This document shows positions 14,640 to 37,253 of a stretch of DNA of 45,973 nt, one piece after another. Source of the DNA: Conexibacter sp. (GTDB lineage: Bacteria; Actinomycetota; Thermoleophilia; Solirubrobacterales; Solirubrobacteraceae); contig JAOPZA010000177.1 in NCBI GenBank assembly GCA_025964325.1, forward strand, positions 1 to 45,973, written 5' to 3'. The translations under genes were made by a program, and so were the position numbers. Position 1 is the stretch's first letter. Every line of letters begins with the position of its first letter. The notes under the pieces are model-generated. The model did no database searches, was not told the DNA's origin, and worked only from the letters and a program-made list of their open reading frames with translations.

Positions 14640-14653
14640 TCCAGCCCATGAGG

Positions 14654-14683: not shown

Positions 14684-14826
14684 TCAGCGCCGACGGGGTC
14701 ACTCCCGCAGTCCGGGAGCTGCTCGCAGAGGACGTCGGCGGAGTGGATGTGCCGCGAGCTGGTGATCAAATGTCAAGAATATGACCGCGCCTGTTCCCGT
14801 TTCTCCCGCTTCCCAAGGAGCCGCCC

Positions 14827-16160: not shown

Positions 16161-16178
16161 TCAACCGATGCGGATCAC

Positions 16179-16204
16179 GGAGCGCCCCCGCCCGGGGGCG
16201 CTCC
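16179..16204 (+). terminator. Hairpin between binding-protein and permease genes
   Basis: GGAGCGCCCCC and GGGGGCGCTCC form a perfect 11-bp stem with a 4-nt loop in the 60-nt spacer. Such hairpins after binding-protein genes protect the upstream mRNA and cause partial termination, giving more binding protein than permease. No T-run follows. Confidence 0.65.
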
Positions 16205-16220
16205 GCCGCGACCTCCTCTC

Positions 16221-17138
16221 ATGACCTTCTTCCTCCAGCAGGTCGTCGACGGCCTCACCACGGGCAGCGTCTACGCGCTCATCGCCCTTGGCTACTCGAT
16301 GGTCTACGGCGTCCTCAAGCTGCTCAACTTCGCCCACGGCGACATCTACATGGTCGGGGCGTTCATCGGCTACTTCGTGCTGCAGGCGTTCGGCGGCGCG
16401 ACGGCGCTGGTCGCGCCGGTCGCCGTGGTGCTGATCGCCATGTTCGCCGCCGCGGCGCTCGGCGCCGGCCTCCTCGGCGTCGGCATCGAGCGGTTCGCCT
16501 ACCGGCCGCTGCGCGAGTCGCCCCGCATCGCGCCGCTGATCACCGCGCTCGGCGTCTCGTTCTTCCTCGAGAACGCCGTGCTGCTGTTGTTCGGCTCCGA
16601 GACGCGGCTGTACTCGACCTCCAGCTTCATCCCCTTCTCGACCGGGGTCCACGTCGCCGGCGTGAACATCTCGCTCGTCCGGATCCTCGTGGTCGTCCTG
16701 GCCGCCGTCCTGATGGTGGGCCTGCGCGTGCTGGTCGAGCGCACGCGCCTCGGCAAGGCGATGCGCGCCGTCGCGTTCGACCGCGAGGCGGCCGAGATGA
16801 TGGGCATCCAGGTCGACCGCACGATCAGCGCGACGTTCTTCATCGGCTCGGCGCTGGCCGGCGTCGCCGGCGTGATGGCGGGGCTCGTGTTCGACCAGGT
16901 CTTCAGCCTGATGGGCTTCATCGCCGGCCTGAAGGCGTTCACCGCCGCGGTCGTCGGCGGCATCGGCAACGTCCCGGGCGCGATGCTCGGCGGCCTCCTG
17001 ATCGGCCTCGCCGAGTCCTTCGCGACGGGCTACATCTCGTCGACCTTCCAGAACCTGATCGTGTTCGGGATCCTGATCGGGGTCATGCTCCTGCGCCCCA
17101 ACGGGCTGCTCGGCCGCGCGACGCTGCAGAAGGTCTGA
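16221..17138 (+). CDS. livH: Liv-type ABC permease, LivH family
   Basis: The 305-aa integral membrane protein starts with FFLQQVVDGLTTGSVYALIALGYSM-type residues typical of LivH. It has about eight hydrophobic segments, the cytoplasmic RLGKAMRAVAFDREAAEMMGI coupling region (about residues 175-195) that contacts the ATPases, and the C-terminal VVGGIGNVPGAMLGG motif. It pairs with LivM to form the channel. It is separated from the binding-protein gene by a hairpin and precedes livM by 10 nt. Confidence 0.94.
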   Translation: MTFFLQQVVDGLTTGSVYALIALGYSMVYGVLKLLNFAHGDIYMVGAFIGYFVLQAFGGATALVAPVAVVLIAMFAAAALGAGLLGVGIERFAYRPLRESPRIAPLITALGVSFFLENAVLLLFGSETRLYSTSSFIPFSTGVHVAGVNISLVRILVVVLAAVLMVGLRVLVERTRLGKAMRAVAFDREAAEMMGIQVDRTISATFFIGSALAGVAGVMAGLVFDQVFSLMGFIAGLKAFTAAVVGGIGNVPGAMLGGLLIGLAESFATGYISSTFQNLIVFGILIGVMLLRPNGLLGRATLQKV

Positions 17139-17148
17139 GGGGATCGGC

Positions 17149-18582: not shown

Positions 18583-19373
18583 CGAGGCCCCTGCTGGAGC
18601 TCGACCACGTGACGCTGGCCTTCGGGGGCCTGCACGCGGTCGAGGACCTCTCGATCGCCGTCGGGGAGGGCGAGATCGTCAGCCTGATCGGCCCCAACGG
18701 CGCCGGCAAGACGACGCTGTTCAACCTCATCACCGGCGTCTACGCGCCGACCTCGGGCGACATCCGCGTGGCCGGTCGCAGCATCGCCGGGCTCGCGCCC
18801 CATCGGATCGCCGGGCTCGGCGTCGCGCGCACGTTCCAGACGCTGCGGCTGTTCGTCAACATGAGCGTCAAGGAGAACGTGATGGCGGCGACGTACGGCC
18901 ACACGAGCGCGCGCATGTGGCAGTCCGTCCTGCGCACGCCGAAGGCGCGCCGCGAGGAGCGCGAGGTCAACGCGCTGGCCGAGGAGGTGCTCGGCTTCTT
19001 CTCCCAGCGGCTGATGGGCTATCGCTGGGACCAGCCCGCCTACAGCCTCTCGTACGCCAACCGCCGCCGGCTCGAGATCGCGCGCGCGATGGCGACGCGG
19101 CCGCGGGTGCTGCTGATCGACGAGCCGGCGGCCGGGATGAACCCGCAGGAGACGCACGAGATCACCGACCTGATCGCACGGCTACGCGACGAGCGCGGCT
19201 ACACGATCCTGGCGATCGAGCACGACATGCACGTGGTCGAGGGGATCTCCGATCGCGTGATCGCGCTCGACCACGGCCAGAAGATCGCCGAGGGCAGCTT
19301 CGAGGCGGTCGCGACGAACCCGCTCGTGGTCGAGGCCTACATGGGGCGCGGGACGGCGGTGACGAAGGGATGA
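18579..19373 (+). CDS. livG: Liv-type ABC transporter ATP-binding protein LivG
   Basis: The 264-aa ATPase has Walker A GPNGAGKTT, a Q-loop in VARTFQTLRLF, a signature-like LSYANRRRLEIARAMA in place of LSGGQQ, Walker B VLLIDEPAAGMNP, and the H-loop AIEHDMHVV. The AAGMNPQET D-loop is typical of LivG. The GTG start overlaps the livM stop. It forms a heterodimer with LivF and powers import through LivHM. Confidence 0.94.
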   Translation: MTRPLLELDHVTLAFGGLHAVEDLSIAVGEGEIVSLIGPNGAGKTTLFNLITGVYAPTSGDIRVAGRSIAGLAPHRIAGLGVARTFQTLRLFVNMSVKENVMAATYGHTSARMWQSVLRTPKARREEREVNALAEEVLGFFSQRLMGYRWDQPAYSLSYANRRRLEIARAMATRPRVLLIDEPAAGMNPQETHEITDLIARLRDERGYTILAIEHDMHVVEGISDRVIALDHGQKIAEGSFEAVATNPLVVEAYMGRGTAVTKG

Positions 19374-20107
19374 GGAACGGCGATCGAGCCGCGAGCGACG
19401 CGATCCTGCTGCGGCTCGAGGAGATCACGACGCACTACGGGCCGATCCGGATCCTCGAGCAGGTCTCGATCGAGGTCGGCGAGGGCGAGCTCGTCTGCCT
19501 GCTGGGCGGCAACGCCTCCGGCAAGTCGACGACGCTCAAGACGATCCTCGGGCTGGTGCGCCCGACCTCGGGGCGCGTGCTGCTGCGCGGCGAGGACGTG
19601 ACGAACCGGCAGGTCAGCTACCGCGTCGGGCGCGGGATGGCGATCGTGCCCGAGAACCGCCGCGTGTTCGCGCCGCTGACCGTCCTCGAGAACCTCGAGC
19701 TGGGCGCCTACCTGCGCCACGGCGAGGACCTGCGCGAGGAGTTCGAGCGCGTCTACACCTTGTTCCCGCGCCTGCACGAGCGCGGCGACCAGCTCGCGGG
19801 GACGCTGTCGGGTGGCGAGCAGCAGATGCTGGCGATGGGCCGCGCGCTGATGTCGCGTCCGCGCCTGCTGCTGATGGACGAGCCGTCGATGGGGCTCTCC
19901 CCGGCGCTCGTGGAGCAGAACTTCGAGATCATCGCGCAGATCCACGCGACCGGCGTCGGCATCCTCGTGGTCGAGCAGAACGCCAACATGGCGCTGTCGA
20001 TCGCCGACCGCGGCTACGTGCTGCAGACGGGCCAGGTCGTGCTCGCGAACCGCTCGAGCGAGCTGCTCGCGAGCGACGAGCTCAAGAAGGCCTACCTCGG
20101 GCGTTGA
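19370..20107 (+). CDS. livF: Liv-type ABC transporter ATP-binding protein LivF
   Basis: The 245-aa ATPase has Walker A GGNASGKSTT, Q-loop region VPENRRVFAPLTVLENLELGAY, signature LSGGEQQMLAMGRALM, Walker B LLLMDEPSMGLSP, and the H-loop-like VVEQN typical of LivF. The ATG overlaps the livG stop (ATGA). The last 26 bp overlap the 3' end of the convergent YbjQ-domain gene. It completes the Liv operon. Confidence 0.94.
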   Translation: MRNGDRAASDAILLRLEEITTHYGPIRILEQVSIEVGEGELVCLLGGNASGKSTTLKTILGLVRPTSGRVLLRGEDVTNRQVSYRVGRGMAIVPENRRVFAPLTVLENLELGAYLRHGEDLREEFERVYTLFPRLHERGDQLAGTLSGGEQQMLAMGRALMSRPRLLLMDEPSMGLSPALVEQNFEIIAQIHATGVGILVVEQNANMALSIADRGYVLQTGQVVLANRSSELLASDELKKAYLGR

Positions 20108-20915
20108 GGTCGAGCACCGGCGCGGGCGAGGCGATCGCGTCGATCCCGCCCTCGGCGGCGACGATCGCGGTCCCGACCGCGAAGAACTCGATCACGTGGC
20201 TGCCCCAGCCGTGGTTCTTCTCCTGGAGGTCGACGCCGACGATCCCTTCCGCCTGCAGATCCTGTGCCTCGCTCTGCATCCGCTCCATCGCGAGCTCGCG
20301 CGCGTCGTAGAGCGCCTGGGTGAAGTTCGGCAGCTCGACGTTGCGTCCCATCTGGCCGAGTGACTGGAACATCCCGCGGTGCGCGACGTGGTAGACGCAG
20401 CTGCCCATCACCATCCCGACGGGGCGATGGCCGGTCCGCATCAGGGTCCAGAAGTCCTGGCCGGAGAGGTCGCTCGTGAACGGGCGCCCGTTGGGGGCGC
20501 GGTGCAGGACGCCCTCGCGGTGCTTGATCGCGGTGCCGATCGCGATGAACTCGGCCATGTTCTCGCCCCACTCGTAGCGGCCGATGTCGAGCCGCACGCC
20601 GACGATCCCGTCGGCGCCGAGCTGGTCGGCCTCCTCCTCCATCCGCGTCATCGCGAGCTGGCGAGCCTCGTACATCGCGCTCGAGAGGACGTTCATCTCC
20701 TGGCTCTTCTTCCAGTTCGAGCCCTGCAGGCCGATGTGGTAGATCGAGCTGCCGACGACGAGGCCGAGCGGATCGAACCCGGCCTGCTTGACCAGCAGGA
20801 ACTCGTTGACGGAGAGGTCCGAGGTGAAGAGGCCGCGCTTGTTCTGCTCCAGGCGCGCGCGCCCGGCGTCCGGGATGCCCTCGACGGAGGTCGGATCGTA
20901 GTTCGAGCTGCTCAT
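20082..20915 (-). CDS. Protein with two YbjQ (UPF0145) domains
   Basis: The 277-aa protein contains two copies of the YbjQ/heavy-metal-binding-like domain, at about residues 20-130 and 140-255. Each copy has FTSDLS, a G-hydrophobic-V-x-G-S-x-x-Y-H segment, a helix like AMYEARQLAMTRMEEEADQLGADGIVGV, and a closing strand EFIAIGTAI or EFFAVGTAI. Single-domain relatives form pentamers of unknown function. AGGAG lies 8 nt before the ATG. It is downstream of a small hypothetical gene on the same strand, and its end overlaps livF by 26 bp. Confidence 0.85.
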   Translation of the reverse strand: MSSSNYDPTSVEGIPDAGRARLEQNKRGLFTSDLSVNEFLLVKQAGFDPLGLVVGSSIYHIGLQGSNWKKSQEMNVLSSAMYEARQLAMTRMEEEADQLGADGIVGVRLDIGRYEWGENMAEFIAIGTAIKHREGVLHRAPNGRPFTSDLSGQDFWTLMRTGHRPVGMVMGSCVYHVAHRGMFQSLGQMGRNVELPNFTQALYDARELAMERMQSEAQDLQAEGIVGVDLQEKNHGWGSHVIEFFAVGTAIVAAEGGIDAIASPAPVLDLNARGRPS

Positions 20916-21424: not shown

Positions 21425-22390
21425 CTAGAGCTTCTCCCAGGCGACCGCGATCGCGGTCTCGAGGACGGCGCCGGGGGCGAGCGTGCGGAGGGCGCCCGCC
21501 GCGATCGCATCGGGCGTCGAGCGTCCCGGGATCGTGGAGAACTCGAGCGCGAAGGTGTCGCCGCCGCCCCACAGCGGATAGCCGTCGTCGGGTCCGAGGT
21601 CCTGCCACAGGAGCACGTGCGGGAACGTCGCGGCGTCGTAGTCGACCCGCAGCGCGCGGCCGAAGCGCGGCGCCTCGATGCGGATGCGGCCGCGCGGCAC
21701 GTCGAGGCAGGCGTGGTCGACGCGGCCGTCGCGCTCGACCGGCACGGTCGAGAGGTCCTCCTCGCCGCCGTCACGCCGCCGCGCGTGCGGCCAGTCGAAC
21801 GCGACGCCGGGCTCGAGGACCGCGTGGCCCGGCGCATGCGCGGGCGCCGGCACGGTCGCCGCGCTCGGCGCGATCGCGATCCGGCCGCCGGCGAACGTCA
21901 CGCGCGAGAAGCATGGGTGGTGTCCCCACGCGTAGGGCGCCGGCAGCCCGCCGACGTTCTCCACTCGTTCGTGCACGCGCAGCGTCGCGCCGTCGAGCGC
22001 GAGCCGGCGCTCGACCGCGAAGGGACGGCGCAGCGTCCGCACGCGCGCGGTGACGCTCGTCGCCGAGCGCTCGACGAGCTCCCACGGGAGCCGCACGACC
22101 TCGCCGTGGAGGAAGGACGTCGGGTCCTCGGCGAGCGGGTAGCCGACCTCCGGGAACATCGCGAACCAGCCGCCCGCGAAGCGGTCGAGGAACGTGGCGA
22201 CCGACGCCTCCCCGGCGCTCCCGAGCGCCCGCGTGGCAGGCGCTGGCTGGTGGGCCGGCCGGCGCCACAGTGCCTCGGCGCCGCTGGCGCGGTCGAGCAG
22301 CGAGTCGATCGTGAAGCCGTGCTCCGGGGCGCAGTCGACCTGCAGCTGCTCGTTCGCGAGCGTCAGGGACCCTGGCAGCGGCGGGCTCAC
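21425..22390 (-). CDS. Aldose 1-epimerase-like protein (mutarotase fold)
   Basis: The 321-aa protein has the galactose-mutarotase beta-sandwich pattern. Recognisable parts are ENVGGLPAPYAWGHHPCFS (His pair in the middle of the protein), GVAFDWPHARR, and FPHVLLWQDLGPDDGYPLWGGGDTFALEFST near the C-terminus. It probably interconverts sugar anomers or binds the sugar substrate of the pathway. The GTG at 22390 overlaps the stop of the upstream dehydratase (GTGA). It is the last gene of the seven-gene minus-strand catabolic operon. Confidence 0.8.
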   Translation of the reverse strand: MSPPLPGSLTLANEQLQVDCAPEHGFTIDSLLDRASGAEALWRRPAHQPAPATRALGSAGEASVATFLDRFAGGWFAMFPEVGYPLAEDPTSFLHGEVVRLPWELVERSATSVTARVRTLRRPFAVERRLALDGATLRVHERVENVGGLPAPYAWGHHPCFSRVTFAGGRIAIAPSAATVPAPAHAPGHAVLEPGVAFDWPHARRRDGGEEDLSTVPVERDGRVDHACLDVPRGRIRIEAPRFGRALRVDYDAATFPHVLLWQDLGPDDGYPLWGGGDTFALEFSTIPGRSTPDAIAAGALRTLAPGAVLETAIAVAWEKL

Positions 22391-23562
22391 GACGCTCCGC
22401 TGCCGGCGTGCTGGCCGAGCCGGCGCTCCCAGCCGTCGGCGTGGACGTCGAGGTAGGCGCTTGCGTCCGGCGGATGCGCGCGGGCGAGCTCGACGTCGAG
22501 CTCGAGGCCGAGGCCCGGTCCCGTCGGGATCTCGAGCTCGCCGGTTGCGGCGTCGAGCGCCGGGATCCAGCTGACGAGCTCGCGCGTCCACGGCTCGTTG
22601 AACGGATCGAAGTGCTCCTGGATCAGGACGTTCGGCACGGTCGCGGCGAGCTGCAGGCAGACGGCGGTCGCGACCGGGCCGCCGCTCTGGTGCGGCGCGA
22701 CCCACGCGCCCGCGGCCGCCGCCATCTCGGCGACGGCGAGCGTCGGCGCGATGCCGCCGAGCGACATCGGCTCGGGTTGCACGATGCTGACGCCGCCGCC
22801 GGCGAGCAGCGTGTGGAACTGGCCGACGAGATGGAACGTCTCGCCGCTCGCGACCGGGATCGGACTCGCGTGCGCGACCGCGTTGGTGGGCGCCTCGCGC
22901 TCGCGCGTCGTCGGCTCCTCCCACCATCCGATCCCGAGCGGCGCGAAGCGGCGCGCGACGCGGATCGCCTCGGCCTCGGCGAAGCGCGCATGGACGTCGA
23001 TCAGGAGCTGCAGCTGCGGTCCGCCGCGCTCCCGCAGCGCCGCGACGATCTCGTAGGCGCGCGTCAGCTCGGCCTCCGAGATGAACCCCTGGGCGGTCCC
23101 GAACGGGTCGAGCTTGAGCGCGCGGAAGCCGTGCGCGAGCGCGACGTCGGCGGCCGCCACGAACGCCTCCGGCGTGCGCTCGGCGCGATACCAGCCGTTC
23201 GCGTACGCGGGCACCCGCGTCCGCACGGGGCCGCCGAGGAGCCGGTGGATCGGCACGCCGAGCGACTTCCCGAGGATGTCCCAGCAGGCGACCTCGATCG
23301 CGGCGACGGCCGTCTTGTGGATGTGGCCGCCGTCGTTGGAGACGCGCTCGACCAGCCGCCGCGAGAGGCGGCGGACGTCGCGCGGATCCTCGCCGACGAC
23401 GAGGTGGGAGAGCTCGTGGACGGCGGCCTCGATCGTCTTCGCGAACCCGTTGAGCGTGCCCTCGCCGAGGCCGACGATCCCGGCGTCGGTGTGCACGCGC
23501 ACGAACAGCCAGTTCTTCCAGCCGGCGCCGACCGGCAGCGTCTCGAGCTCGACGATCCTCAC
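22387..23562 (-). CDS. Enolase-superfamily (MR/MLE) sugar-acid dehydratase 1
   Basis: The 391-aa protein is a mandelate racemase/muconate lactonizing family member of galactonate-dehydratase type. It has the N-terminal capping domain, a Lys in FRALKLDPFG, metal ligands Asp in LLIDVHARF, Glu in GWWEEP and Glu in VASGETFH, and the catalytic-site His in VAPHQSGGPVA. The DVH and PHQSGGP motifs match acid-sugar dehydratases that form 2-keto-3-deoxy acids. The GTG at 23562 overlaps the transketolase N-subunit stop. The exact sugar acid cannot be read from sequence. Confidence 0.88.
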   Translation of the reverse strand: MRIVELETLPVGAGWKNWLFVRVHTDAGIVGLGEGTLNGFAKTIEAAVHELSHLVVGEDPRDVRRLSRRLVERVSNDGGHIHKTAVAAIEVACWDILGKSLGVPIHRLLGGPVRTRVPAYANGWYRAERTPEAFVAAADVALAHGFRALKLDPFGTAQGFISEAELTRAYEIVAALRERGGPQLQLLIDVHARFAEAEAIRVARRFAPLGIGWWEEPTTREREAPTNAVAHASPIPVASGETFHLVGQFHTLLAGGGVSIVQPEPMSLGGIAPTLAVAEMAAAAGAWVAPHQSGGPVATAVCLQLAATVPNVLIQEHFDPFNEPWTRELVSWIPALDAATGELEIPTGPGLGLELDVELARAHPPDASAYLDVHADGWERRLGQHAGSGAS

Positions 23563-24383
23563 GGCGCCGCCGCCTCGAGCTCGTCGAGCGCCCGCGCCCA
23601 GACCGCGTCCTCGACGCGGATGTAGTGCGTGTTGCGGTACTCCTCGAGGCACGGCACGCCCTTGGCGAGCGTCGTCTCGAGCACGATCGCGCTCGGGCGA
23701 TCGCGCGTCGCGCGGGCCTGCGCGAAGGCGGCCAGCAGCGCGTCGACGTCGTGCGCGTCGACGCGCCGGGCGGCGAAGCCGAAGGCGGCGAACTTCTCCG
23801 GCACCGGCTCGACGCCCATCACCGATGCCGTCAGGCCGTCGGCCTGCGTGCGGTTGTTGTCGATCAGCACGACGAGGTCCTCGAGCCTGTGGTGGCCGGC
23901 CGCCATCGCCGCCTCCCACGTCTGGCCCTCCTGCAGCTCGCCGTCGGAGACGAGGCAGAAGACGCGGTTGCCGCTGCCGGCCAGGCGCTCGGCGAGCGCG
24001 ATCCCGACCGCCTGCGAGAGACCCTGGCCGAGCGAGCCGCCGGTGATCTCGAAGCCGGGCAGGCCTTCGAGCGGGCTCTCCTCGATCCGCGACCCGTCCA
24101 TCCCGTAGGTCGCCAGCTCCTCCGCCGCGTAGACGCCCAGCTCGCCGAGCACGGCGAACAGCGCGATCGCGCTGTGGCCGGTCGAGATCACGAGCGCGTC
24201 GCGGTAGCGGCCGTCGTCGCCGCGGCGCAGCTCGTGGTGGTGGAGGCAGGCCATCAGGTCGGCGAGCGCGAGGCCCTGGCCGGCGTAGCCCTGGCCGCGG
24301 CCGCGGCACATCTCCAGCACGCGGCGGCGGATCCCGTGCGCGTGGCGCGCGAGGTCGGCGCGATCCATCTCCAGCGCGGTCAT
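23559..24383 (-). CDS. Transketolase N-terminal subunit
   Basis: The 274-aa subunit is the thiamine-diphosphate-binding half of a split transketolase. It has the STGHSAIALFAVLGELG segment, GGSLGQGLSQAVGIALAERL, and the TPP motif SDGELQEGQTWEA...LIDNN (about residues 145-180). The ATG at 24383 overlaps the stop of the C-terminal subunit gene (ATGA). Together they should move a two-carbon ketol unit between sugars. Split transketolases occur in several specialised sugar pathways in addition to the pentose phosphate pathway. Confidence 0.92.
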   Translation of the reverse strand: MTALEMDRADLARHAHGIRRRVLEMCRGRGQGYAGQGLALADLMACLHHHELRRGDDGRYRDALVISTGHSAIALFAVLGELGVYAAEELATYGMDGSRIEESPLEGLPGFEITGGSLGQGLSQAVGIALAERLAGSGNRVFCLVSDGELQEGQTWEAAMAAGHHRLEDLVVLIDNNRTQADGLTASVMGVEPVPEKFAAFGFAARRVDAHDVDALLAAFAQARATRDRPSAIVLETTLAKGVPCLEEYRNTHYIRVEDAVWARALDELEAAAP

Positions 24384-25333
24384 CGGTTCTCCTCCAGGCG
24401 GGTGGCGAGCGCGTCGGGGTCGAGCCCCAGCTCGCGCTTGATGTGGTCGAGCGAGCCGGCGGGCGCCCAGACGTCGGGCACGCCGGCGGCCTCGACGCGG
24501 GTCGCGGCTCCGGTGCGCGCGAGCGCCTCGGCGACGACCGACGCGAGCCCGCCGATCGTGGTGTGGTTCTCGACCGTCGTGACGACCTCGAAGCGGGCGC
24601 AGAAGGCGGCGATCGCCGCCTGGTCGACCGGCTTGAGCGTCGGCACGTGGAGCACCGAGGCGTGCACGCCGCGCTGCGCCAGGCGCTCGCTCGCCTCGAG
24701 CGCCCATTCGGTCCCGAGCCCGGTGCCGATCACGCCGACGTCGCCGCCGTCGAGCAGCGTGCGCACGGCGCCGAGCTCGAACGCGAAGCCATCCGGCTCG
24801 ACGTGCTCGCGCACCGCTCCGCGCAGGCCGCGCAGGTAGACGGTGCCGTCGTGCGCGGCGGCGGCGTCGAGCGCGCCGGCGAGTTCCGTCGCGTCGAGCG
24901 GGTCGATCACCGTCATGCCGGGCAGCGCGCGCATCAGCGCGAGGTCGTCGATCGCCTGGTGGGTGGCGCGGAACGGCGTCGTGATGCCGGGCAGGAACGC
25001 GACGACGATCGCGCGGCTGGGGCCGGTGCAGAGCGCCATCGCGACCTGGTCGTAGGCGCGCCGGGTGGCGAACACGCCGTAGGTGACGGCGATCGGCAGC
25101 AGCCCGCGCTTGGCGAGGCCGCCGGCGATCCCGATCATGTTCGCCTCCGCCATCCCGCACTGGAAGAAGCGGTCTGGGAACGCCTGCGCGAACGGCAGCA
25201 CGTCGGTGTATCTCGACAGGTCGGCCGACAGCACGACGATGTCGTCGCGGCGGCGGCCGAGCGCCAGCAGCGCGTCGGCGAACGGAGCGTCGCGCGTGCG
25301 CGGGGATGGTGGCGCGGTCGTCTCGGGGCTCAT
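24380..25333 (-). CDS. Transketolase C-terminal subunit
   Basis: The 317-aa subunit has the pyrimidine-binding domain with the conserved Glu in FFQCGMAEANMIGIAGGLA, TYGVFATRRAYDQV, and TPFRATHQAIDDLALMRALPG. The C-terminal domain follows with VENHTTIGGLASVVAEAL. The ATG at 25333 is preferred because GAGGAG lies 7-8 nt upstream; an ATG at 25351 is in frame but lacks a site. The gene order C-subunit then N-subunit is the reverse of the more common one. It sits between the SDR and the N-subunit genes in the catabolic operon. Confidence 0.91.
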   Translation of the reverse strand: MSPETTAPPSPRTRDAPFADALLALGRRRDDIVVLSADLSRYTDVLPFAQAFPDRFFQCGMAEANMIGIAGGLAKRGLLPIAVTYGVFATRRAYDQVAMALCTGPSRAIVVAFLPGITTPFRATHQAIDDLALMRALPGMTVIDPLDATELAGALDAAAAHDGTVYLRGLRGAVREHVEPDGFAFELGAVRTLLDGGDVGVIGTGLGTEWALEASERLAQRGVHASVLHVPTLKPVDQAAIAAFCARFEVVTTVENHTTIGGLASVVAEALARTGAATRVEAAGVPDVWAPAGSLDHIKRELGLDPDALATRLEENR

Positions 25334-25375
25334 CTGGACTCTCCTCGTCATGGGGCTCGGCGGCTGGTCTCGCCG

Positions 25376-26161
25376 CTACAGCAGCGAGCCGCCGTTGACG
25401 CGCAGCACGTGGCCGTGCACGAACGTCGAGAGCGGGCTCAGCAGGAAGACGCAGGCGGCGGCGATCTCCTCGGGGCGGCCGAGGCGGCCGAACAGCGTGC
25501 GCGCGCCGACGCTCGCCTGCTGCTCGGCCGTCGTGCCGCCGATCAGGGACGGCGTCCCGATCGGGCCGGGGGAGACGGCGTTGACGCGGATCTGGTGGGG
25601 CCCCGCCTCACGCGCGAGCGTCTTCGTCAGCGCGATCACGCCGCCCTTCGCGACGGCGTAGTGGGCGGCGGGGCTGATCGCGCCGTACTCGCCGGAGGTC
25701 GAGGCGAAGTTGACGATCGAGCCGGAGCCGCGCTCGATCATGCCTGGCAGCACCGCCCGGCAGCCGGCGACGGCGGTGTCGAGGTTCGCGCGCACGACGC
25801 GATCCCAGGCGTCCTCCTCGAGCTCGGTGAAGCTGCCCGTCTCCCAGATCCCGGCGCAGTTGACGAGCCCGTCGACCGGACCGAGCCGCTGCTCGACGCG
25901 CTCGACGAAGCCGCGGAACTGAGCGCGGTCGGAGGCGTCGATCGCCTCCGCGAAGGCGTCGTCGCCGAGCTCGGCGGCGACCGGCGCGAGCGTCTGGGCG
26001 AAGCGATCGGTCAGCGCGACGCGCGCGCCGGCGGCCGCGAGCATGCGCGCCGTCGTGGCGCCGATCCCGCCGGCGGCGCCGGTCAGGATCACGGTCGTCC
26101 CGGTCAGGAGCGGCGCGCTGCCGACCGCGGTCCAGGCGTCGGGGGCGGTGATGTCGGTCAT
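25376..26161 (-). CDS. SDR oxidoreductase, sugar dehydrogenase-like
   Basis: The 261-aa protein is a classical SDR. It has TGAAGGIG, an Asp after beta-2 (ALTDRF, suggesting NAD preference), NCAGIW, the Ser of NFASTSGEYG, the YAVAKG catalytic pair, and VSPGPIGTP. The end, HGHVLRVNGGSLL, is typical of tetrameric SDRs. The ATG overlaps the upstream FCD regulator stop (ATGA). In this operon it is a good candidate for oxidising the sugar to a lactone, or a sugar alcohol to a ketose. Confidence 0.86.
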   Translation of the reverse strand: MTDITAPDAWTAVGSAPLLTGTTVILTGAAGGIGATTARMLAAAGARVALTDRFAQTLAPVAAELGDDAFAEAIDASDRAQFRGFVERVEQRLGPVDGLVNCAGIWETGSFTELEEDAWDRVVRANLDTAVAGCRAVLPGMIERGSGSIVNFASTSGEYGAISPAAHYAVAKGGVIALTKTLAREAGPHQIRVNAVSPGPIGTPSLIGGTTAEQQASVGARTLFGRLGRPEEIAAACVFLLSPLSTFVHGHVLRVNGGSLL

Positions 26162-26895
26162 GGGGCGGAGGTCTCCGAGTGGTCGCGGGCGGTGAACATG
26201 GACGTCGTCACGTCGAACTGCTCGATCAGCAGGACGATCGAGCGCGCTGCGTCGTGGTCGGCGATCGCGTCGACGAGCGGTCGGTGCGTGCCGAGGATGC
26301 GGGTGAAGTTGCGGTCCGGGTCGCGCTCGGCCAGGCGGCGGTTCCCGATCGTGATGACTGTGTGGATGACGGGTGCGAGCGCGAGCCACGCCTGTGTCAG
26401 GAAGCGGCTGCCGGAGAGCTCGACGAGGCTGCGGTGGAAGCCGACGTCGAGGTCGACGAGCCGTTGCGTCGAGGCGCCCTCGTGCTCGATCGCGGCGAAC
26501 GCTCTCTGCACGGGCGTGGGGTCGGCTCTGCGCCGGATGCCGCGTGCGATCGCCGCCGTCTCGAGCTCGAGCCGCACGCCGGTGAGATCCTCGAGGTCGG
26601 CCGCGCCGAAGCCGACGACGACCGTGCGGCCGTTGCGCAGCGTGCGCACCAGGCCCTCGCCCTCGAGCACGTTGAGCGCGTTGCGGACCGGCCCGCGGCT
26701 GACCTGGAGCTGCTGCGCCAGGCGCATCTCGACGAGCGGCGCCTCGGGCGCCAGGCGTCCCTCGATGATCGCCTCGCGCAGGATCTCGGCGACCCAGCCG
26801 GAGTGGACGCTGCGTTCGAGCTTCGTCGCGTGCTGGCCGGCGGCGCCGGTCGCGCCGCCGCGGCGCCCGAAGCTCGGCAGCGCCCCCGAGCTCAT
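26158..26895 (-). CDS. GntR/FCD regulator 1
   Basis: The 245-aa regulator has a winged helix (LREAIIEGRLAPEAPLVEM, then QLQVSRGPVRNALNVLEGEG) and an FCD domain with Asp/His in DLDVGFHRSLVE and His in LGTHRPLVDAI. The usual last FCD His is replaced in LLIEQFDVT. It is a close paralogue of the regulator at 33796-34524. It is embedded second in its operon, between the metallo-hydrolase and SDR genes, with ATGA overlaps on both sides, so it should control its own synthesis. The palindromes at 27730 and 27858 are its likely operators. Confidence 0.87.
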   Translation of the reverse strand: MSSGALPSFGRRGGATGAAGQHATKLERSVHSGWVAEILREAIIEGRLAPEAPLVEMRLAQQLQVSRGPVRNALNVLEGEGLVRTLRNGRTVVVGFGAADLEDLTGVRLELETAAIARGIRRRADPTPVQRAFAAIEHEGASTQRLVDLDVGFHRSLVELSGSRFLTQAWLALAPVIHTVITIGNRRLAERDPDRNFTRILGTHRPLVDAIADHDAARSIVLLIEQFDVTTSMFTARDHSETSAP

Positions 26896-27707
26896 GCGGG
26901 CAGGTCCCGGACCGGCCGCAGCGCGAGGGGCTCGCCGTGCTCGAGGACGCGGGTGCGGGGGCCGCCCAGCTGGGCGCAGGTGTCGACGAACAGCTGCGGG
27001 TCGAGCGTCGGAGCGCCGGGGCCGTCCTGCCCCGACCAGGCGCCGTAGCCCTCGGGCGCCCACATCCCGTAATGGCAGGGGATCGCGACGCCGACTTCGA
27101 GCGCGGAGGCCATCAGGGCGGCCTCACGGGCGTTCATGCAGCCGCCGCTGCCGTTGCTGACGAACAGCCCCGCGTCGAACGGTCCGTGGCGACGCACCGC
27201 GAGGCAGCGCGCGTCGTACTCGGTGTCGCCGCTGTGGAGGATCCGCACGCCGCCGGTCTCCACGACGAGGCCGATCGCGTCCTCGGTCAGGAAGCCCGGC
27301 ACCTCGTGGCGGGCGAACGTGCCGTGCAGCGTGAACGGCCCGACCGCCGTGGTCTCCTCACGTTCGAGGGTGACGATCCGGTCGCGGGCGATGCCGCGCC
27401 CGAGCAGGCGGAAGACGATGCTCGACGGTCCGACGAAGATCGTCTGCGGGTTGGTGGCCGCGAGCGCCTCGCAGGTCGGCAGGTCGAGGTGGTCGTGGTG
27501 CCAGTGCGTGATCGCCACGCAGGTCGCGCTGGTGCTGGACGCGTCGAGCACGACCGGGGCGATCCGCGGGGTGCCGAGCTCCTCCAGGACGTAGTCCGAC
27601 AGGTAGGGGTCGATCAGGCACAGCTGCCCGTCGGCGGCCTCCAGCGCGTAGCCGGCCTGGCCCAGCCACGTGAGCGTCGCCGTGGCGACTGAGCTCGTAC
27701 TCGTCAA
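26892..27707 (-). CDS. UlaG-like metallo-beta-lactamase-fold hydrolase
   Basis: The 271-aa protein has the metal-binding HxHxDH motif in ITHWHHDHLDLP, then HEVPG, HSGDTEYD and IPCHYGMW. These match the UlaG-like group, which includes L-ascorbate-6-phosphate lactonase. In this operon it may open a sugar lactone made by the SDR. The start is TTG at 27707 with GGAGG about 7 nt upstream. The nearby ATG is in another frame and meets TGA after one codon. It is the first gene of the seven-gene operon. Confidence 0.83.
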   Translation of the reverse strand: MTSTSSVATATLTWLGQAGYALEAADGQLCLIDPYLSDYVLEELGTPRIAPVVLDASSTSATCVAITHWHHDHLDLPTCEALAATNPQTIFVGPSSIVFRLLGRGIARDRIVTLEREETTAVGPFTLHGTFARHEVPGFLTEDAIGLVVETGGVRILHSGDTEYDARCLAVRRHGPFDAGLFVSNGSGGCMNAREAALMASALEVGVAIPCHYGMWAPEGYGAWSGQDGPGAPTLDPQLFVDTCAQLGGPRTRVLEHGEPLALRPVRDLPA

Positions 27708-27729: not shown

Positions 27730-27746
27730 TTGCAAACAGTTTGCAA
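27730..27746. promoter_or_regulatory. Operator palindrome O1
   Basis: TTGCAAACAGTTTGCAA is a perfect 8-bp inverted repeat around one central base. It lies just downstream of the putative transcription start of the minus-strand operon, where a bound GntR-type repressor would block transcription. It closely matches the palindrome at 27858. Confidence 0.75.
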
Positions 27747-27857: not shown

Positions 27858-27874
27858 TTGCTAACAGTTCTCAA
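27858..27874. promoter_or_regulatory. Operator palindrome O2
   Basis: TTGCTAACAGTTCTCAA shares the 17-bp frame of O1: TTG and CAA at the ends and AACAGTT in the centre, with imperfect arms. It is 128 bp from O1 centre to centre and covers the predicted transcription start of the importer operon. Confidence 0.65.
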
Positions 27875-28017: not shown

Positions 28018-29106
28018 TTGTCCCGTCGCCTGCACCCGGCCGCCCTCGTCGCCGCCTGCGCCGCGCTCGCGCTCGGCGTCGCCGCCTGCGGCTCGTCCGG
28101 CAGCTCGTCGTCAGGAGGCGCGTCCGCGTCATCCGGCGGCGGCAAGAAGACCTACACCGTCTATCTCTCGAACAGCTTCCTCGGCAACGACTGGCGCCAG
28201 CAGATGGAGCGCACCGCCAGCGCCGCCGCGACCGTCGCGCCGCTCGCGGGCCACGTGAAGCTGACGGTCGTCAACACCGACAACGACCCGACGAAGCAGA
28301 TCCAGTCGCTCAACCAGATCATCCTCAAGAAGCCCGACGCGATCCTCGTCGACGCCTCCTCGCCGGATGCGCTCAACCCGACCGTCCAGCGCGCCTGCGC
28401 GCAGGGCATCAAGGTCATCTCCTTCGACCAGGCCGTCACCGCCGACTGCGCCTGGAAGGTCAACACCGACTTCAACGTCTCGGCCGCGATCGGCGCCAGA
28501 TGGCTCGCCGAGACGCTGCACGGCAAGGGCACGGTCCTGATGGACCGCGGGCTGGCCGGCAACCCGGTCTCGCTCACGATGGTGAACGGCTTCCAGAAGG
28601 TGCTGAAGGGCTATCCCGGCGTCAAGGTCGCCGGCACCTACGAGAGCCAGTACGCGCTCGCGCCCGAGGAGCAGGCCGCGTCGAGCCTGATCGCCGCGCA
28701 TCCGCAGATCGACGGCGTGCTGTCGCAGAGCTACGGGACGGGCGTCCAGAAGGCGCTGCAGAAGGCAGGCCGCCCGCCGGTCGCGATGTACGCGCAGGCC
28801 TACAACGGCTCCTTCGTGCAGTGCGCGACGACGAAGGGGATCCAGTGCGCGATCACCTCGAACCCGGCGACGCTCGGCGCCGAGGCGCTCAAGCGCGCGG
28901 TCGACCTGCTCGACGGCAAGCAGGTGCCGAAGACCGTGATCCTGCCCAGCCCCGCGTTCGAGACGAATGACGTGAGCGTTCCCGGCACGACGTTCGAGAA
29001 GATCGTCCTCGGCAAGTCGGCCTTCCCGGACCTGCCGCCCGGAGCGACGCTGCCGTTCTCGCCGAGCTGGACGACGATCACGTCGGCCCAGGCGCTCGGC
29101 ACGTAG
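28018..29106 (+). CDS. Sugar ABC transporter substrate-binding lipoprotein
   Basis: The 362-aa protein has a lipoprotein signal with lipobox VAAC (LGVAACGSS) and a Ser/Gly-rich linker. A ribose-type binding fold follows: TYTVYLSNSFLGNDWRQQM, the NDPTKQIQSLNQIILKKPDA segment, GIKVISFDQAV, DGVLSQSYGTGVQKAL. TTG at 28018 is chosen because AGGAGG lies about 6 nt upstream and the signal peptide begins there. It feeds the two permeases encoded downstream. The ligand is probably a sugar or sugar acid handled by the divergent operon. Confidence 0.9.
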   Translation: MSRRLHPAALVAACAALALGVAACGSSGSSSSGGASASSGGGKKTYTVYLSNSFLGNDWRQQMERTASAAATVAPLAGHVKLTVVNTDNDPTKQIQSLNQIILKKPDAILVDASSPDALNPTVQRACAQGIKVISFDQAVTADCAWKVNTDFNVSAAIGARWLAETLHGKGTVLMDRGLAGNPVSLTMVNGFQKVLKGYPGVKVAGTYESQYALAPEEQAASSLIAAHPQIDGVLSQSYGTGVQKALQKAGRPPVAMYAQAYNGSFVQCATTKGIQCAITSNPATLGAEALKRAVDLLDGKQVPKTVILPSPAFETNDVSVPGTTFEKIVLGKSAFPDLPPGATLPFSPSWTTITSAQALGT

Positions 29107-29115
29107 GCGTCGGCG

Positions 29116-30633
29116 ATGTCCGTCCTCCGCATCACCGACCTGCGCAAGCGCTACGGCGCCGTGCACGCGCTCGACGGCGCCTCCCTCGAGGCGCGGTCGG
29201 GCGAGGTGCACGCGCTCCTGGGCGAGAACGGCGCCGGCAAGTCGACGCTGATCAAGATCCTCTCCGGGGCGGTCCGGCACGACGGCGGCAGCATCGCGCT
29301 CGACGACCGCGAGCTGCGCATCCGCTCCCCGCGCGACGCCGTGCGCGCGGGGATCGGCACCGCGTTCCAGGAGCTCAGCCTGATCCCGGACCTGACGGTC
29401 GCGCAGAACCTGTTCTTCGGTCGCGAGCCGCTCGGCCGCCTGCGCGGCGTCCGGCGGGGACGGCTGGAGCAGGAGGCGGCCGCGCTGCTCGAGCAGCTGG
29501 GGATCGAGCGGATCGCGGCGACCGCGCTCGTGCGGACGCTGCCGATCGCGCAGCGCCAGCTGGTCGAGATCGCGAAGGCGGCCGCGCGCCGCCCGCGCGT
29601 GCTGATCCTCGACGAGGCGACCTCGGCGCTGTCGCCCGCGGAGGGGACGTGGCTGCTGGAGCTGGCGCGGCGGACCGCGCGCGAGGGCGCGATCGTGATC
29701 TTCATCTCGCACCGCCTCGCGGAGATCCGCGACGTCGCCGATCGCATGACCGTCTTCCGCGCCGGCGTCGACGTCGGGGCCGGCGCGATCGACCAGATCG
29801 ACGACGACGAGGCGGTGCGGCTGATGCTCGGCCGTCGCGTCGAGCGGCTCTATCCGCCGCGGCGCGAGGCGGTCGGCGAGGAGGTCGTGCTGGCGGCGCG
29901 CGGGCTGACGCTCGGGACGCGCCTCGCAGGCGTCGACCTCGACCTGCGGCGGGGCGAGATCCTCGGCGTCGGCGGGCTCCAGGGGCAGGGGCAGCGCGAG
30001 CTGTTCAACGCGCTCGCGGGCGCGACCCCGGCACGCGGCCGGATCGAGCTCGAGGGCCGCGAGATCCACCCGACCAGCCCGCGCCGCGCGCTCGCCGAGG
30101 GGATCGCGCTCGTGCCCGAGGACCGCCAGCGCGAGGGGCTGCTGCTCGACCTCTCGATCCGCGACAACATCGCACTTCCCGTGATCGAGCGGATCTCGCG
30201 CGCCGGCTTCGTCGACGCCCGCGCTGAGACGCGGATGGTCGCGGAGGTGGCCGAGCGGCTGCAGATCACGGCCGGGTCGTGGGCGCGCGAGGCGGGCAGC
30301 CTCTCCGGCGGCAACCAGCAGAAGGTGGTGCTCGCCAAGACGCTCGTCTCGGGCGCGCGGGTCCTGCTGCTCTACGACGCGACGCGCGGCGTCGACGTCG
30401 GCACCAAGTCCGAGATCTTCACGCTGCTGCGCGAGCTCGCCGGAAGCGGGATGGCGACCCTCTTCTACTCGACCGACCTCCAGGAGCTGACGAACGTGTG
30501 CGACCGCGTGGCCGTGATGGCGGACGGCCGCATCGGCGGGATCCTCGCCGGCCCGCAGCTGACGGAGGAGAACGTGCTGCGGCTGTCGGTCGGCGGCAGC
30601 CTGCCGCCGGTGGCGGCGGAGGCCGTCCGATGA
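29116..30633 (+). CDS. Sugar ABC transporter ATP-binding protein, double-domain (RbsA/MglA type)
   Basis: The 505-aa protein is a tandem ATPase. Domain 1 has Walker A GENGAGKST, signature-like LPIAQRQLVEIAKAA, Walker B LILDEATSALSP and H-loop FISHRLAEI. Domain 2 has the degenerate P-loop region GVGGLQGQGQREL, a good signature LSGGNQQKVVLAK, and LLLYDATRGVDVG where DEPTRG is expected. The second Walker B therefore has Tyr-Asp-Ala in place of Asp-Glu-Pro. Nine nt separate it from the binding-protein gene, and its stop overlaps the first permease start (ATGA). Confidence 0.92.
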   Translation: MSVLRITDLRKRYGAVHALDGASLEARSGEVHALLGENGAGKSTLIKILSGAVRHDGGSIALDDRELRIRSPRDAVRAGIGTAFQELSLIPDLTVAQNLFFGREPLGRLRGVRRGRLEQEAAALLEQLGIERIAATALVRTLPIAQRQLVEIAKAAARRPRVLILDEATSALSPAEGTWLLELARRTAREGAIVIFISHRLAEIRDVADRMTVFRAGVDVGAGAIDQIDDDEAVRLMLGRRVERLYPPRREAVGEEVVLAARGLTLGTRLAGVDLDLRRGEILGVGGLQGQGQRELFNALAGATPARGRIELEGREIHPTSPRRALAEGIALVPEDRQREGLLLDLSIRDNIALPVIERISRAGFVDARAETRMVAEVAERLQITAGSWAREAGSLSGGNQQKVVLAKTLVSGARVLLLYDATRGVDVGTKSEIFTLLRELAGSGMATLFYSTDLQELTNVCDRVAVMADGRIGGILAGPQLTEENVLRLSVGGSLPPVAAEAVR

Positions 30634-31601
30634 GCGCCGCGCTCGCGCTCGCGCGCGGCCGCCTGTCGCTCGTGACGGCGCTCCCGTTCGTGCTGCTGGC
30701 CGTGCTCGTCGTGCTCGACGTCTCGCTCCAGCCGGCGCTGCTCTCGCGCGACCAGATCGGGATCGAGGTCGCGACCGCGATGTCGCTGGTCCTCGTCGGC
30801 CTCGGCCAGACGGTCGTGATCCTGACGCGCGGGATCGACCTCTCGGTCGGCGGCATGATGAGCCTGACGAACTGCTTGCTGGCGACGCGCGTCGGCAGCG
30901 GCACCGGCTCGCTGCTGCTGTGGTGCGCGATCATCCTGCTCGTCGGGATCGCCGGCGGCGCCGTCAACGGCCTGCTGATCGGCCTCACGCGCCTGCAGCC
31001 GTTCGTCGTGACGCTCGCGACCTGGTCGATCTTCAACGGCGTCGCCCTCTGGATCCTGCCCTCGCCGGGCGGCCACGTGCCGAACGCGCTGATCTCGCTG
31101 CCGCTCGGCGACTGGGCCGGGATCCCGCGGATGCTGTGGATCCTCGCGGCCGTCTGCGTGCTGTGGTCGCTGCTGCGCCGGACCCGCACCGGGGTGCAGG
31201 TCTACGCGTTCGGCAGCGACCCGGACGCCGCCTTCCTGAGCGGCGTCTCGACGCTCGGCGTGACGCTGCGCGTCTACGCCTTCTCGGGCCTGTGCGCGGC
31301 GCTCGCGGGCATCTTCGTCGCGACGCAGACGGCGTCCGGCTCGCCGACGGTCGGCGCGCCGTTCATCCTCAACGCGGTCGCGGCGGTCGTGATCGGCGGC
31401 ACGAGCCTGTTCGGCGGGCGCGGCGGCTTCGCCGGCACGGTCGCCGGCGCGTTCGTGCTGACGCTGATCGCCGAGGTCACGTTCGGCCTCGGCATCAACT
31501 CGAACTGGGGCGTCTTCGCGCAGGGGCTGCTCCTGATCCTCGCGGTCGCGGTCAACACCGGCAGCGAGCTCGTCCAGCGACGCAGGGAGGAACGACGGTG
31601 A
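30630..31601 (+). CDS. Sugar ABC transporter permease 1 (RbsC-like)
   Basis: The 323-aa membrane protein has family motifs LVGLGQTVVILTRGIDLSVGG (about residues 53-73), AVNGLLIGLTRLQPFVVTLAT, and VVIGGTSLFGGRGG near the C-terminus, with eight or more hydrophobic segments. It likely forms a heterodimer with permease 2. Its start overlaps the ATPase stop, and its stop overlaps the permease 2 GTG. Confidence 0.93.
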   Translation: MSAALALARGRLSLVTALPFVLLAVLVVLDVSLQPALLSRDQIGIEVATAMSLVLVGLGQTVVILTRGIDLSVGGMMSLTNCLLATRVGSGTGSLLLWCAIILLVGIAGGAVNGLLIGLTRLQPFVVTLATWSIFNGVALWILPSPGGHVPNALISLPLGDWAGIPRMLWILAAVCVLWSLLRRTRTGVQVYAFGSDPDAAFLSGVSTLGVTLRVYAFSGLCAALAGIFVATQTASGSPTVGAPFILNAVAAVVIGGTSLFGGRGGFAGTVAGAFVLTLIAEVTFGLGINSNWGVFAQGLLLILAVAVNTGSELVQRRREERR

Positions 31602-32548
31602 CCGATCGACGGCAATGGCTGCGTCGCAACCAGGCGACGCTGCTCGCGTATGCGATGGCGATCGCGCTCTTCCTCGTGACGAGCGCGTTCGCGCACGGCT
31701 TCGCGACCTGGAATCACACGCGCGTGCTGCTCGTGCAGGCGTGCTTCATCGGGATCGTCGGACTGGGGCAGACGTTCGTGATCCTCGGCGGCGGCGTCGA
31801 CCTGTCCGTGCCGTGGATGCTGAACGCGACCGCGACGCTGCTGACGCTGTGGTGCCACGGCCAGGCGGCGAACCTCGTGTGGGTGCTGCCGGTGCTGCTC
31901 GCCATGGCGGTGATCGTCGGGCTCGTCAACGGGCTCGGCGTGACGCTGCTCGGCGTCTCGCCGATCATCATGACCCTCGGGGTCAACGGCGTCCTGCAGG
32001 GCGCGCTGCTGCTGATCACCAACGGCGGCCAGAGCCCGACCGCGCCGCACGCGATCCAGCAGCTCGCGACCGGCAACGTCGCCGGCATCCCGATCGCCCT
32101 GCTGGTGTGGGCCGCGGTCGCGCTGATCGCGTGGCTGCTGCTGTCGAAGATGAGCCTCGGTCGCCAGCTCTACGCGACCGGGACGAACGCGCGCGTCGCG
32201 TACCTCTCCGGCGTGCGGGTGGGGCGCGTGACGGTCCTCTCATACGTCATCTCGGCGCTCGCGAGCGCGCTCGCGGGCGTGCTGCTCGCGGGCTACGTCG
32301 GCGAGGCGTACCTCGGGATGGGCGACGTGTACCTGTTCTCGTCCGTCGCGGCGGTCGTGATCGGCGGGGCGTCGATCCTCGGCGGTCGCGGCCACTACGT
32401 CGGCACGGTCGCGGGCGCGCTGATCCTGACGCTCCTCGCGGCCCTGCTGCCGATCCTGAACCTCAACCCGGCGGCGCTGCAGGTCGTCTACGGCTTCGCG
32501 ATCCTGCTGACGGTCGGGCTCGCCTCGCTGCGACTCGGCGGCACCTGA
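31598..32548 (+). CDS. Sugar ABC transporter permease 2 (RbsC-like)
   Basis: The 316-aa membrane protein has FIGIVGLGQTFVILGGGVDLS, VNGLGVTLLGVSPIIMTLG, SLGRQLYATGTNARVAYLSG and VVIGGASILGGRGHYVGT motifs. The GTG overlaps the permease 1 stop (GTGA), and GGAGG lies about 8 nt upstream. It is the last gene of the importer operon. A hairpin follows its stop directly. Confidence 0.93.
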   Translation: MTDRRQWLRRNQATLLAYAMAIALFLVTSAFAHGFATWNHTRVLLVQACFIGIVGLGQTFVILGGGVDLSVPWMLNATATLLTLWCHGQAANLVWVLPVLLAMAVIVGLVNGLGVTLLGVSPIIMTLGVNGVLQGALLLITNGGQSPTAPHAIQQLATGNVAGIPIALLVWAAVALIAWLLLSKMSLGRQLYATGTNARVAYLSGVRVGRVTVLSYVISALASALAGVLLAGYVGEAYLGMGDVYLFSSVAAVVIGGASILGGRGHYVGTVAGALILTLLAALLPILNLNPAALQVVYGFAILLTVGLASLRLGGT

Positions 32549-36133: not shown

Positions 36134-36154
36134 CCCACACAGGAGGAACACCGA

Positions 36155-37216: not shown

Positions 37217-37253
37217 TCGGCGCCGTCCGCGCGCACAGGACCTCGGCGGCGTC

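What the first reader, a model, noticed from the sequence alone, without database searches (positions are those of the whole stretch)
21425..27707. Seven-gene sugar catabolic operon with split transketolase, dehydratase and lactonase-like enzyme but no aldolase
UlaG-like hydrolase, FCD regulator, SDR, transketolase C and N halves, MR/MLE dehydratase and mutarotase are translationally coupled except at one 42-nt gap. A reading: mutarotase and SDR make a lactone, the metallo-hydrolase opens it, the dehydratase makes a 2-keto-3-deoxy acid. No KDG/KDPG aldolase or sugar kinase is present in the operon, and the role of the transketolase is not obvious. Split transketolases are known in D-apiose and sulfosugar pathways, but the companions differ here. 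This may be an undescribed route.
Basis: partly seen in the sequence, partly recalled or inferred. Interest (0 to 1): 0.72.

Follow-up and report, generated by a model that had tools for sequence, protein, structure and literature searches.

The report
Conserved sugar-acid pathway with unusual transketolase
A soil actinobacterium carries a seven-gene operon, with an importer and a second small gene unit, that looks like an undescribed route for breaking down a plant or microbial sugar without kinase or aldolase, using a two-part transketolase whose substrate-holding residues have been replaced; most of the gene set recurs in distant bacteria, so it is a real pathway worth testing.

Summary
The operon is real: UlaG-like hydrolase, FCD regulator, SDR, transketolase C-half, N-half, MR/MLE dehydratase and DUF4432 mutarotase-like gene, 27707→21425, with 4-nt overlaps except one gap (24 or 42 nt). 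It extends beyond the given coordinates. The divergent sugar ABC importer and a second unit (FCD2 plus MR/MLE2, 34524→32591) belong to it. An operator palindrome lies at all three promoters (2 mismatches at the third) and nowhere else in the genome at ≤1 mismatch. The gene set recurs in Actinomycetota, Acidobacteriota and, partly, Chloroflexota. Relatives add a secreted GH36-like glycosidase, a second SDR, a D-2-hydroxyacid dehydrogenase and a 2-oxoacid dehydrogenase complex; this genome has those on another contig. The transketolase belongs to an SDR-linked clade that has lost canonical substrate residues (E. coli H26, H100, S385, H461, D469). Its subclade places the C-half first, and one relative is a naturally permuted single chain. 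Best reading (inferred): kinase-free oxidation of a sugar to sugar acids, with the transketolase moving a two-carbon ketol from an SDR-made keto-sugar acid to glyceraldehyde-3-phosphate, giving xylulose-5-phosphate. Substrate and reactions are untested. No described pathway matched in the papers I could search.

The parts
26892..27707 (-). UlaG-like metallo-beta-lactamase-fold hydrolase (271 aa, TTG start after AGGAGG), putative sugar-acid lactonase
   Evidence: PF12706 57.5 bits; HxHxDH motif THWHHDH in translation; remote to UlaG
26158..26895 (-). GntR/FCD transcriptional regulator
   Evidence: PF00392 + PF07729; 57.7% identical to FCD2
25376..26161 (-). SDR oxidoreductase (probably NAD-dependent, from the acidic residue after beta-2)
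   Evidence: PF13561 207 bits; orthologues 59-69% in relatives
24380..25351 (-). split transketolase, C-terminal half (Pyr + TKC domains), encoded before the N half
   Evidence: PF02779/PF02780; altered substrate motif PGITTPF-RATHQ
23559..24383 (-). split transketolase, N-terminal half (ThDP-binding PP domain)
   Evidence: PF00456 121 bits; GQGY and EESP in place of GH and GHP
22387..23562 (-). MR/MLE acid-sugar dehydratase A
   Evidence: MR_MLE_N/C; best NCBIfam gluconate/galactonate dehydratases 249/244 bits, below cut-offs; KLD, DVH, WEE, GET, PHQ residues
21425..22390 (-). DUF4432 mutarotase-like protein
   Evidence: PF14486 29.5 bits, sub-threshold; orthologues 57-69% in clustered relatives
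27730..27746 (.). operator, perfect palindrome TTGCAAACAGTTTGCAA upstream of the hydrolase gene
27858..27874 (.). second operator copy TTGCTAACAGTTCTCAA, importer side of the divergent promoter region
28018..29106 (+). periplasmic sugar-binding protein (Peripla_BP_4); start uncertain, may be 27874
   Evidence: PF13407 181 bits
29116..30633 (+). sugar ABC transporter ATPase (two ABC domains)
   Evidence: AraG/XylG/RbsA-type matches
30630..31601 (+). sugar ABC permease 1
   Evidence: RbsC/GguB-type matches
31598..32548 (+). sugar ABC permease 2
   Evidence: PF02653 109 bits
32591..33799 (-). MR/MLE acid-sugar dehydratase B (MRMLE2), second enzyme of the system
   Evidence: co-occurs with dehydratase A in relatives; KVW, EGH, VED, SER, PHD residues
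33796..34524 (-). FCD2 regulator, paralogue of the operon regulator
   Evidence: 57.7% identity
34588..34604 (.). operator-like site, 2 mismatches, upstream of FCD2-MRMLE2

Best explanation
A non-phosphorylative, oxidative pathway for a sugar that relatives release with a secreted GH36-like glycosidase. The ABC importer brings the sugar in; the DUF4432 protein equilibrates anomers; an SDR makes the lactone; the UlaG-like hydrolase opens it to an aldonate. The aldonate is then dehydrated by one of the two MR/MLE enzymes and/or oxidised by an SDR at a carbon next to the terminal CH2OH. The split transketolase is the carbon-carbon-cleaving step: it takes a two-carbon ketol from this unphosphorylated keto-sugar acid and gives it to glyceraldehyde-3-phosphate, making xylulose-5-phosphate and a shorter aldehyde acid (glyoxylate, tartronate semialdehyde or a C4 analogue), which 2-hydroxyacid or beta-hydroxyacid dehydrogenases dispose of. 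This would explain why the operon needs no kinase or aldolase. Shown: gene content, conservation, operator motif, transketolase residue changes. Inferred: substrate, every reaction and their order.
For: Families and overlaps. Core recurrence: L088 (dehydratase A 68%, SDR 59%, B 70%, TKC 69%, TKN 66%, UlaG-like 58%), L086 (TKN, TKC, A 66%, UlaG-like, B 56%, two SDRs), L085/L092, L039/L082. Operator motif at operon, importer and FCD2-B unit and, as a weaker core, upstream of homologous genes in relatives. SDR next to split transketolase, without any MR/MLE gene in the stretches inspected, is recurrent in Proteobacteria with TRAP acid importers, and several of these have a beta-hydroxyacid dehydrogenase scoring 204-316 bits to L-threonate dehydrogenase (cut-off 350). 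Residues that hold phosphate or sugar hydroxyls in canonical transketolase are replaced across the clade, while the catalytic Glu and H473 equivalents are kept and the window subclade gains Arg/Lys beside the lost Asp. Secreted GH36-like glycosidase recurs.
Against: No enzyme was assayed. Conexibacter has glycosidase, importer, SDRs, UlaG-like, mutarotase-like and 2-oxoacid dehydrogenase genes together but no close MR/MLE enzyme and no C-half-first transketolase in that locus, so the transketolase and dehydratases may be a side branch. Two dehydratases plus a transketolase in one line is chemically awkward: a 2-keto-3-deoxy acid lacks the C3-OH a ketol donor needs, so dehydratase and transketolase probably act on different intermediates or sugars. 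E. coli numbering was mapped by alignment and memory. The residue changes would also fit a 2-keto-acid donor.
Confidence: 0.35

Rival explanations
1. Classical non-phosphorylative sugar oxidation (as in PMC6336799, Routes I-III): SDR, UlaG-like lactonase and the two MR/MLE enzymes (for two related sugars) make 2-keto-3-deoxy acids, which genes elsewhere finish (SDR 4-dehydrogenase plus FAH hydrolase, or aldolase). The transketolase only deals with a by-product such as hydroxypyruvate or glycolaldehyde.
For: Route III makes pyruvate plus glycolate or lactate; an FAH hydrolase, FAD-linked oxidase, FCD regulator and E1 genes lie near the glycosidase in the closest relative, G151; PF01557 and PF00701 genes exist in this genome; a dehydratase-A type enzyme lies in an arabinose (araA-containing) operon in L097.
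Against: Does not explain the tight coupling of the transketolase genes to the operon and its recurrence with the dehydratases across phyla, nor the changed transketolase site.
Confidence: 0.25
2. The split enzyme is a 1-deoxyxylulose-5-phosphate-synthase-like, decarboxylating ligase that uses the 2-keto-3-deoxy acid (or pyruvate) made by the dehydratase as donor.
For: E. coli transketolase gains pyruvate as donor by changes at H100 and D469, boosted by S385Y (PMC10787763); the same three positions are changed here, one of them to Tyr. The C half is about equally similar to DXS and to human transketolase (109 against 102 bits).
Against: The changes are shared by proteobacterial clusters without a dehydratase nearby. 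No obvious use for the ligation product.
Confidence: 0.15
3. A cyclitol or keto-sugar pathway in which the UlaG-like protein cleaves a cyclic diketone or 3-keto-lactone rather than a simple aldonolactone, giving a keto-aldonate for the transketolase.
For: Homology to true lactonases is remote; several loci have two SDRs beside it. A UlaG-like C-C hydrolase in Thermotoga inositol catabolism is recalled from memory only.
Against: Mutarotase-like gene and sugar-acid dehydratases point to aldoses; UlaG-like pairs directly with MR/MLE enzymes in T. roseum and Clostridia. My literature search did not retrieve the Thermotoga work.
Confidence: 0.1

Closest known systems
Non-phosphorylative Entner-Doudoroff-type pentose/deoxyhexose pathways, Routes I-III (PMC6336799)
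   Same: SDR aldose dehydrogenase, lactonase, acid-sugar dehydratase, sugar ABC importer and regulator clustered together
   Different: Lactonase of another family, two MR/MLE enzymes, and a split transketolase where the aldolase, second dehydratase or 4-dehydrogenase/FAH hydrolase would be
Sulfo-TK pathway of sulfoquinovose (SqwGH split transketolase; PMC11659671)
   Same: Two-gene transketolase moving a ketol from an unphosphorylated substituted ketose to glyceraldehyde-3-phosphate, giving xylulose-5-phosphate
   Different: No SqvD/SqwI-type isomerase gene in the operon; oxidative enzymes instead; C half encoded first; SqwGH residues were not compared here
D-apiose transketolase pathway (from memory; not found in the held library)
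   Same: Split transketolase in a rare-sugar operon
   Different: No kinase and no isomerase here
L-glucose/L-galactose pathway of Luteolibacter (PMC12632266)
   Same: Dehydrogenation of an aldose to aldonate and then to a 5-keto-aldonate
   Different: Ends with KDG kinase and KDPG aldolase; the paper mentions no transketolase or lactonase
Carboxydothermus hydrogenoformans split transketolase (PDB 6yaj/6yak; PMC7661550)
   Same: Nearest solved homologues of both halves
   Different: Keeps the canonical GH, GHP, SKST and THxGxxxGEDGxSHQ motifs that are changed here

Membership tests
Non-phosphorylative sugar oxidation pathway (Routes I-III) | SDR aldose dehydrogenase gene in the cluster | tested here: met
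   SDR family at 207 bits; substrate not determinable
Non-phosphorylative sugar oxidation pathway (Routes I-III) | Lactonase | tested here: inconclusive
   UlaG-like fold family with HxHxDH motif, but far below the UlaG and PRK00685 cut-offs
Non-phosphorylative sugar oxidation pathway (Routes I-III) | Acid-sugar dehydratase | tested here: met
   Two MR/MLE enzymes with conserved beta-2 Lys, beta-3 Asp/Glu-x-His, metal ligands and beta-7 His; activity not tested
Non-phosphorylative sugar oxidation pathway (Routes I-III) | Exit enzyme: KDG-type aldolase, KDP dehydratase, or 4-dehydrogenase plus FAH hydrolase in the cluster | tested here: not met
   None in window cluster; PF00701 and PF01557 members only elsewhere in the genome
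Canonical transketolase (pentose phosphate pathway type) | ThDP-binding and catalytic Glu motifs | tested here: met
   SDGE...NN and CGMAEAN retained
Canonical transketolase (pentose phosphate pathway type) | Substrate residues H26, H100, S385, H461, D469 (E. coli numbering) | tested here: not met
   Replaced by Y, S, Y, L and F/gap; same kind of pattern across the SDR-linked clade, not in canonical split enzymes
Sulfo-TK or apiose transketolase pathway | Companion isomerase and/or kinase in the operon | tested here: not met
   No isomerase or kinase domain among the seven genes, importer or FCD2-MRMLE2 unit
MR/MLE galactonate/gluconate dehydratase | Score above the equivalog cut-off | tested here: not met
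   249 against 750 and 244 against 311 bits
GntR/FCD regulator with palindromic operator | Domain pair and palindrome at its own promoter | tested here: met
   binding itself not testable here

The most novel reading that the evidence does not exclude
A new transketolase function and architecture: a clade that uses unphosphorylated keto-sugar acids as ketol donors, giving bacteria a fourth exit (beside aldolase, dehydratase and diketo-hydrolase) from oxidative, kinase-free sugar catabolism; within it an actinobacterial subclade encodes the C half before the N half and in one genome fuses them into a circularly permuted single-chain transketolase.
Probability: 0.3. Interest if true: 0.75.

Novelty: new variant of a known kind. 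Interest (0 to 1): 0.57.

Why it matters
If right, it adds a ThDP-dependent way to cut oxidised sugars without ATP, connecting sugar acids straight to the pentose phosphate pool, and it puts a function on a widespread, unassigned group of SDR-plus-split-transketolase gene pairs in Proteobacteria and Actinomycetota. The residue pattern (changes at the positions used to engineer E. coli transketolase toward pyruvate) and the permuted chain are also useful for enzyme engineers. It is directly testable with purified proteins.

Tried and rejected
My first MRMLE2 frame was wrong and gave spurious 52% matches; corrected. AlphaFold of the large secreted protein gave pLDDT 32 and was discarded; its GH36 kinship rests instead on profile-profile comparison with PF02065-positive relatives (Prob 99.2, E=3e-19), since Pfam alone gave no hit. 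NCBIfam/PDB matches for the SDRs were uninformative. A 6-deoxy-sugar substrate (suggested by RhaT-type transporters in Acidobacteriota) was considered, but GH36/beta-L-arabinopyranosidase-like glycosidases and the ara-operon context of a dehydratase-A relative point as much to a galacto/L-arabino-configured sugar; not decided. Paper searches for split transketolase, apiose and hamamelose routes and for MR/MLE plus transketolase clusters found no matching pathway. The idea that 5-keto-aldonates are cleaved by transketolase as in Gluconobacter is from memory. Two wrong requests failed harmlessly.
Full report
Observation. The minus strand 27707→21425 encodes, in order, a UlaG-like metallo-hydrolase, a GntR/FCD regulator, an SDR, the C half and then the N half of a split transketolase, an MR/MLE enzyme and a DUF4432 (mutarotase-like) protein. 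Neighbouring genes overlap by 4 nt, except SDR-TKC, which are 24 nt (first ATG) or 42 nt (second ATG, 25333) apart. The families are secure except two: the hydrolase is only remotely related to UlaG (39.5 bits against a cut-off of 306) and DUF4432 is slightly below threshold. There is no kinase or aldolase in the operon.

Boundaries. The divergent sugar ABC importer (28018-32548) and a minus-strand pair FCD2-MRMLE2 (34524→32591) belong to the same system. FCD and FCD2 are 57.7% identical. The palindrome TTGnnAACnGTTnnCAA occurs with all fixed positions matched at 27730 and 27858, between the divergent operons, and with 2 mismatches at 34588 just upstream of FCD2; no shuffled window of 100 reached three matches. 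In the whole 4.3-Mb genome only the first two sites exist at up to one mismatch. Related sites lie upstream of the hydrolase gene in L036, L037 and L038, of MRMLE2 in L042, of the 2HADH-UlaG-MRMLE2 set in L044 and of the regulator in L093, with 1-3 mismatches. Several other loci (L085, L086, L088) show no such site.

Conservation. One scan of genome contigs with the hydrolase alone returned loci that, without being selected for it, carry the other genes. L040/L088 (Actinomycetota): importer | MRMLE 68%, SDR 59%, MRMLE2 70%, TKC 69%, TKN 66%, hydrolase 58%. L045/L086 (Acidobacteriaceae): TKN 49%, TKC 47%, MRMLE 66%, hydrolase 37%, MRMLE2 56%, two SDRs. L043/L085/L092 (another acidobacterium): two SDRs, TKN, TKC, MRMLE2 55%, hydrolase, RhaT-type transporter, GH36-like genes, DUF4432, MRMLE 40%. 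L039/L082 (Actinomycetes): secreted glycosidase, DUF4432-like 57%, second SDR, hydrolase 61%, importer, FCD 61%, SDR 63%, MRMLE2 75%, 2-hydroxyacid dehydrogenase, E1 alpha/beta, TKC 70%, TKN 67%. L093 (Chloroflexota): MRMLE 39%, DUF4432, two GH36-like, MRMLE2 49%, 2-hydroxyacid dehydrogenase, FCD. The C-half itself is rare: 2 of 396 phylum genomes at E≤1e-75, the window's own included. A smaller unit, UlaG-like plus MR/MLE, occurs in Thermomicrobium and Clostridia.

The rest of the pathway. The window's own genome has a second locus (contig C125): FCD paralogues, E2, E1 beta, E1 alpha, 2-hydroxyacid dehydrogenase, a 1408-aa protein of the secreted glycosidase family, an SDR 69% identical to the window SDR, another importer, and the second SDR. 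Two Conexibacter isolates hold the same genes together with the hydrolase-FCD pair and the DUF4432-like gene in one locus, and L039/L082 combines both loci. This suggests that the two loci serve one catabolic programme. Conexibacter lacks close MR/MLE relatives and the transketolase in that locus, so those are a separable branch. The large secreted proteins have no Pfam match but align with PF02065-positive relatives by profile comparison (Prob 99.2, E=3e-19), so a GH36-like glycosidase is likely and its sugar unknown.

The transketolase. Aligned with canonical split enzymes and PDB relatives, the window's enzyme keeps the catalytic Glu and the second His of the PTHQ motif. It has Tyr for the His of the first GH motif (E. 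coli H26), Ser for H100, Tyr for S385, Leu for H461 and no D469 (E. coli numbering mapped by me). The pattern is shared by a clade separated from canonical enzymes with 97/94 support, whose proteobacterial members sit with an SDR and TRAP importers, several also with a dehydrogenase close to L-threonate dehydrogenase and a xylose-isomerase-like TIM barrel. In E. coli transketolase, changes at H100 and D469 open the enzyme to pyruvate and S385Y boosts this (PMC10787763). The window's subclade (window, L082, L088, L083, L121; 100/99 support) encodes the C half first and has Arg or Lys next to the lost Asp. In genome G405 the two halves are one uninterrupted reading frame in that order, a circularly permuted single chain.

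Mechanism. The shared context suggests that the SDR makes a keto group next to a terminal CH2OH on a sugar acid and that the transketolase moves that C2 ketol to glyceraldehyde-3-phosphate. The products would be xylulose-5-phosphate and a short aldehyde acid, which the 2-hydroxyacid or beta-hydroxyacid dehydrogenases of relatives could handle. The MR/MLE enzymes then either act on other aldonates of the same regulon or on a parallel branch; both keep acid-sugar dehydratase residues. Shown: gene content, conservation, operator motif, residue changes, permutation. Inferred: the substrate, all reactions and their order. The main rivals are a conventional Route I-III pathway with the transketolase as accessory, a DXS-like 2-keto-acid-using enzyme, and a cyclitol-type route.

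Verdict. A conserved, coherent catabolic system that I could not match to a described pathway with the papers available; the component families are known, so it is filed as a new variant of a known kind. The transketolase clade is the most interesting part.

Noticed in passing
L121 8091-10118 (-), genome G405: Single-chain transketolase with the C half before the N half (circular permutation), 593-675 aa depending on start, junction read through in the DNA.
   Followed up: partly
L105, L107-L110, L112, L139, L140: Widespread proteobacterial modules of SDR or other dehydrogenase plus split transketolase, mostly with a TRAP importer (MFS in L108), several with an L-threonate-dehydrogenase-like enzyme, an AP_endonuc_2 TIM barrel or a dihydroxyacetone kinase; members of the altered transketolase clade with no assigned function that I know of.
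   Followed up: partly
window 35456-42459 (+): Separate catabolic locus: GntR/UTRA regulator, SIS-domain protein, PfkB kinase, amidohydrolase, UPF0047 protein and a second sugar ABC importer.
   Followed up: partly
window 20082-20915 (-): Protein with two copies of the YbjQ domain (PF01906).
   Followed up: no
window 13332-19373: Class V aminotransferase gene opposite a Peripla_BP_6-type ABC importer locus.
   Followed up: no
L097 4772-10561 (Herpetosiphonaceae MAG): A dehydratase-A relative (39%) lies in an arabinose operon with araA and an aldolase_II (AraD-like) gene, hinting at an L-arabinose/galacto-configured substrate for this MR/MLE group.
   Followed up: partly
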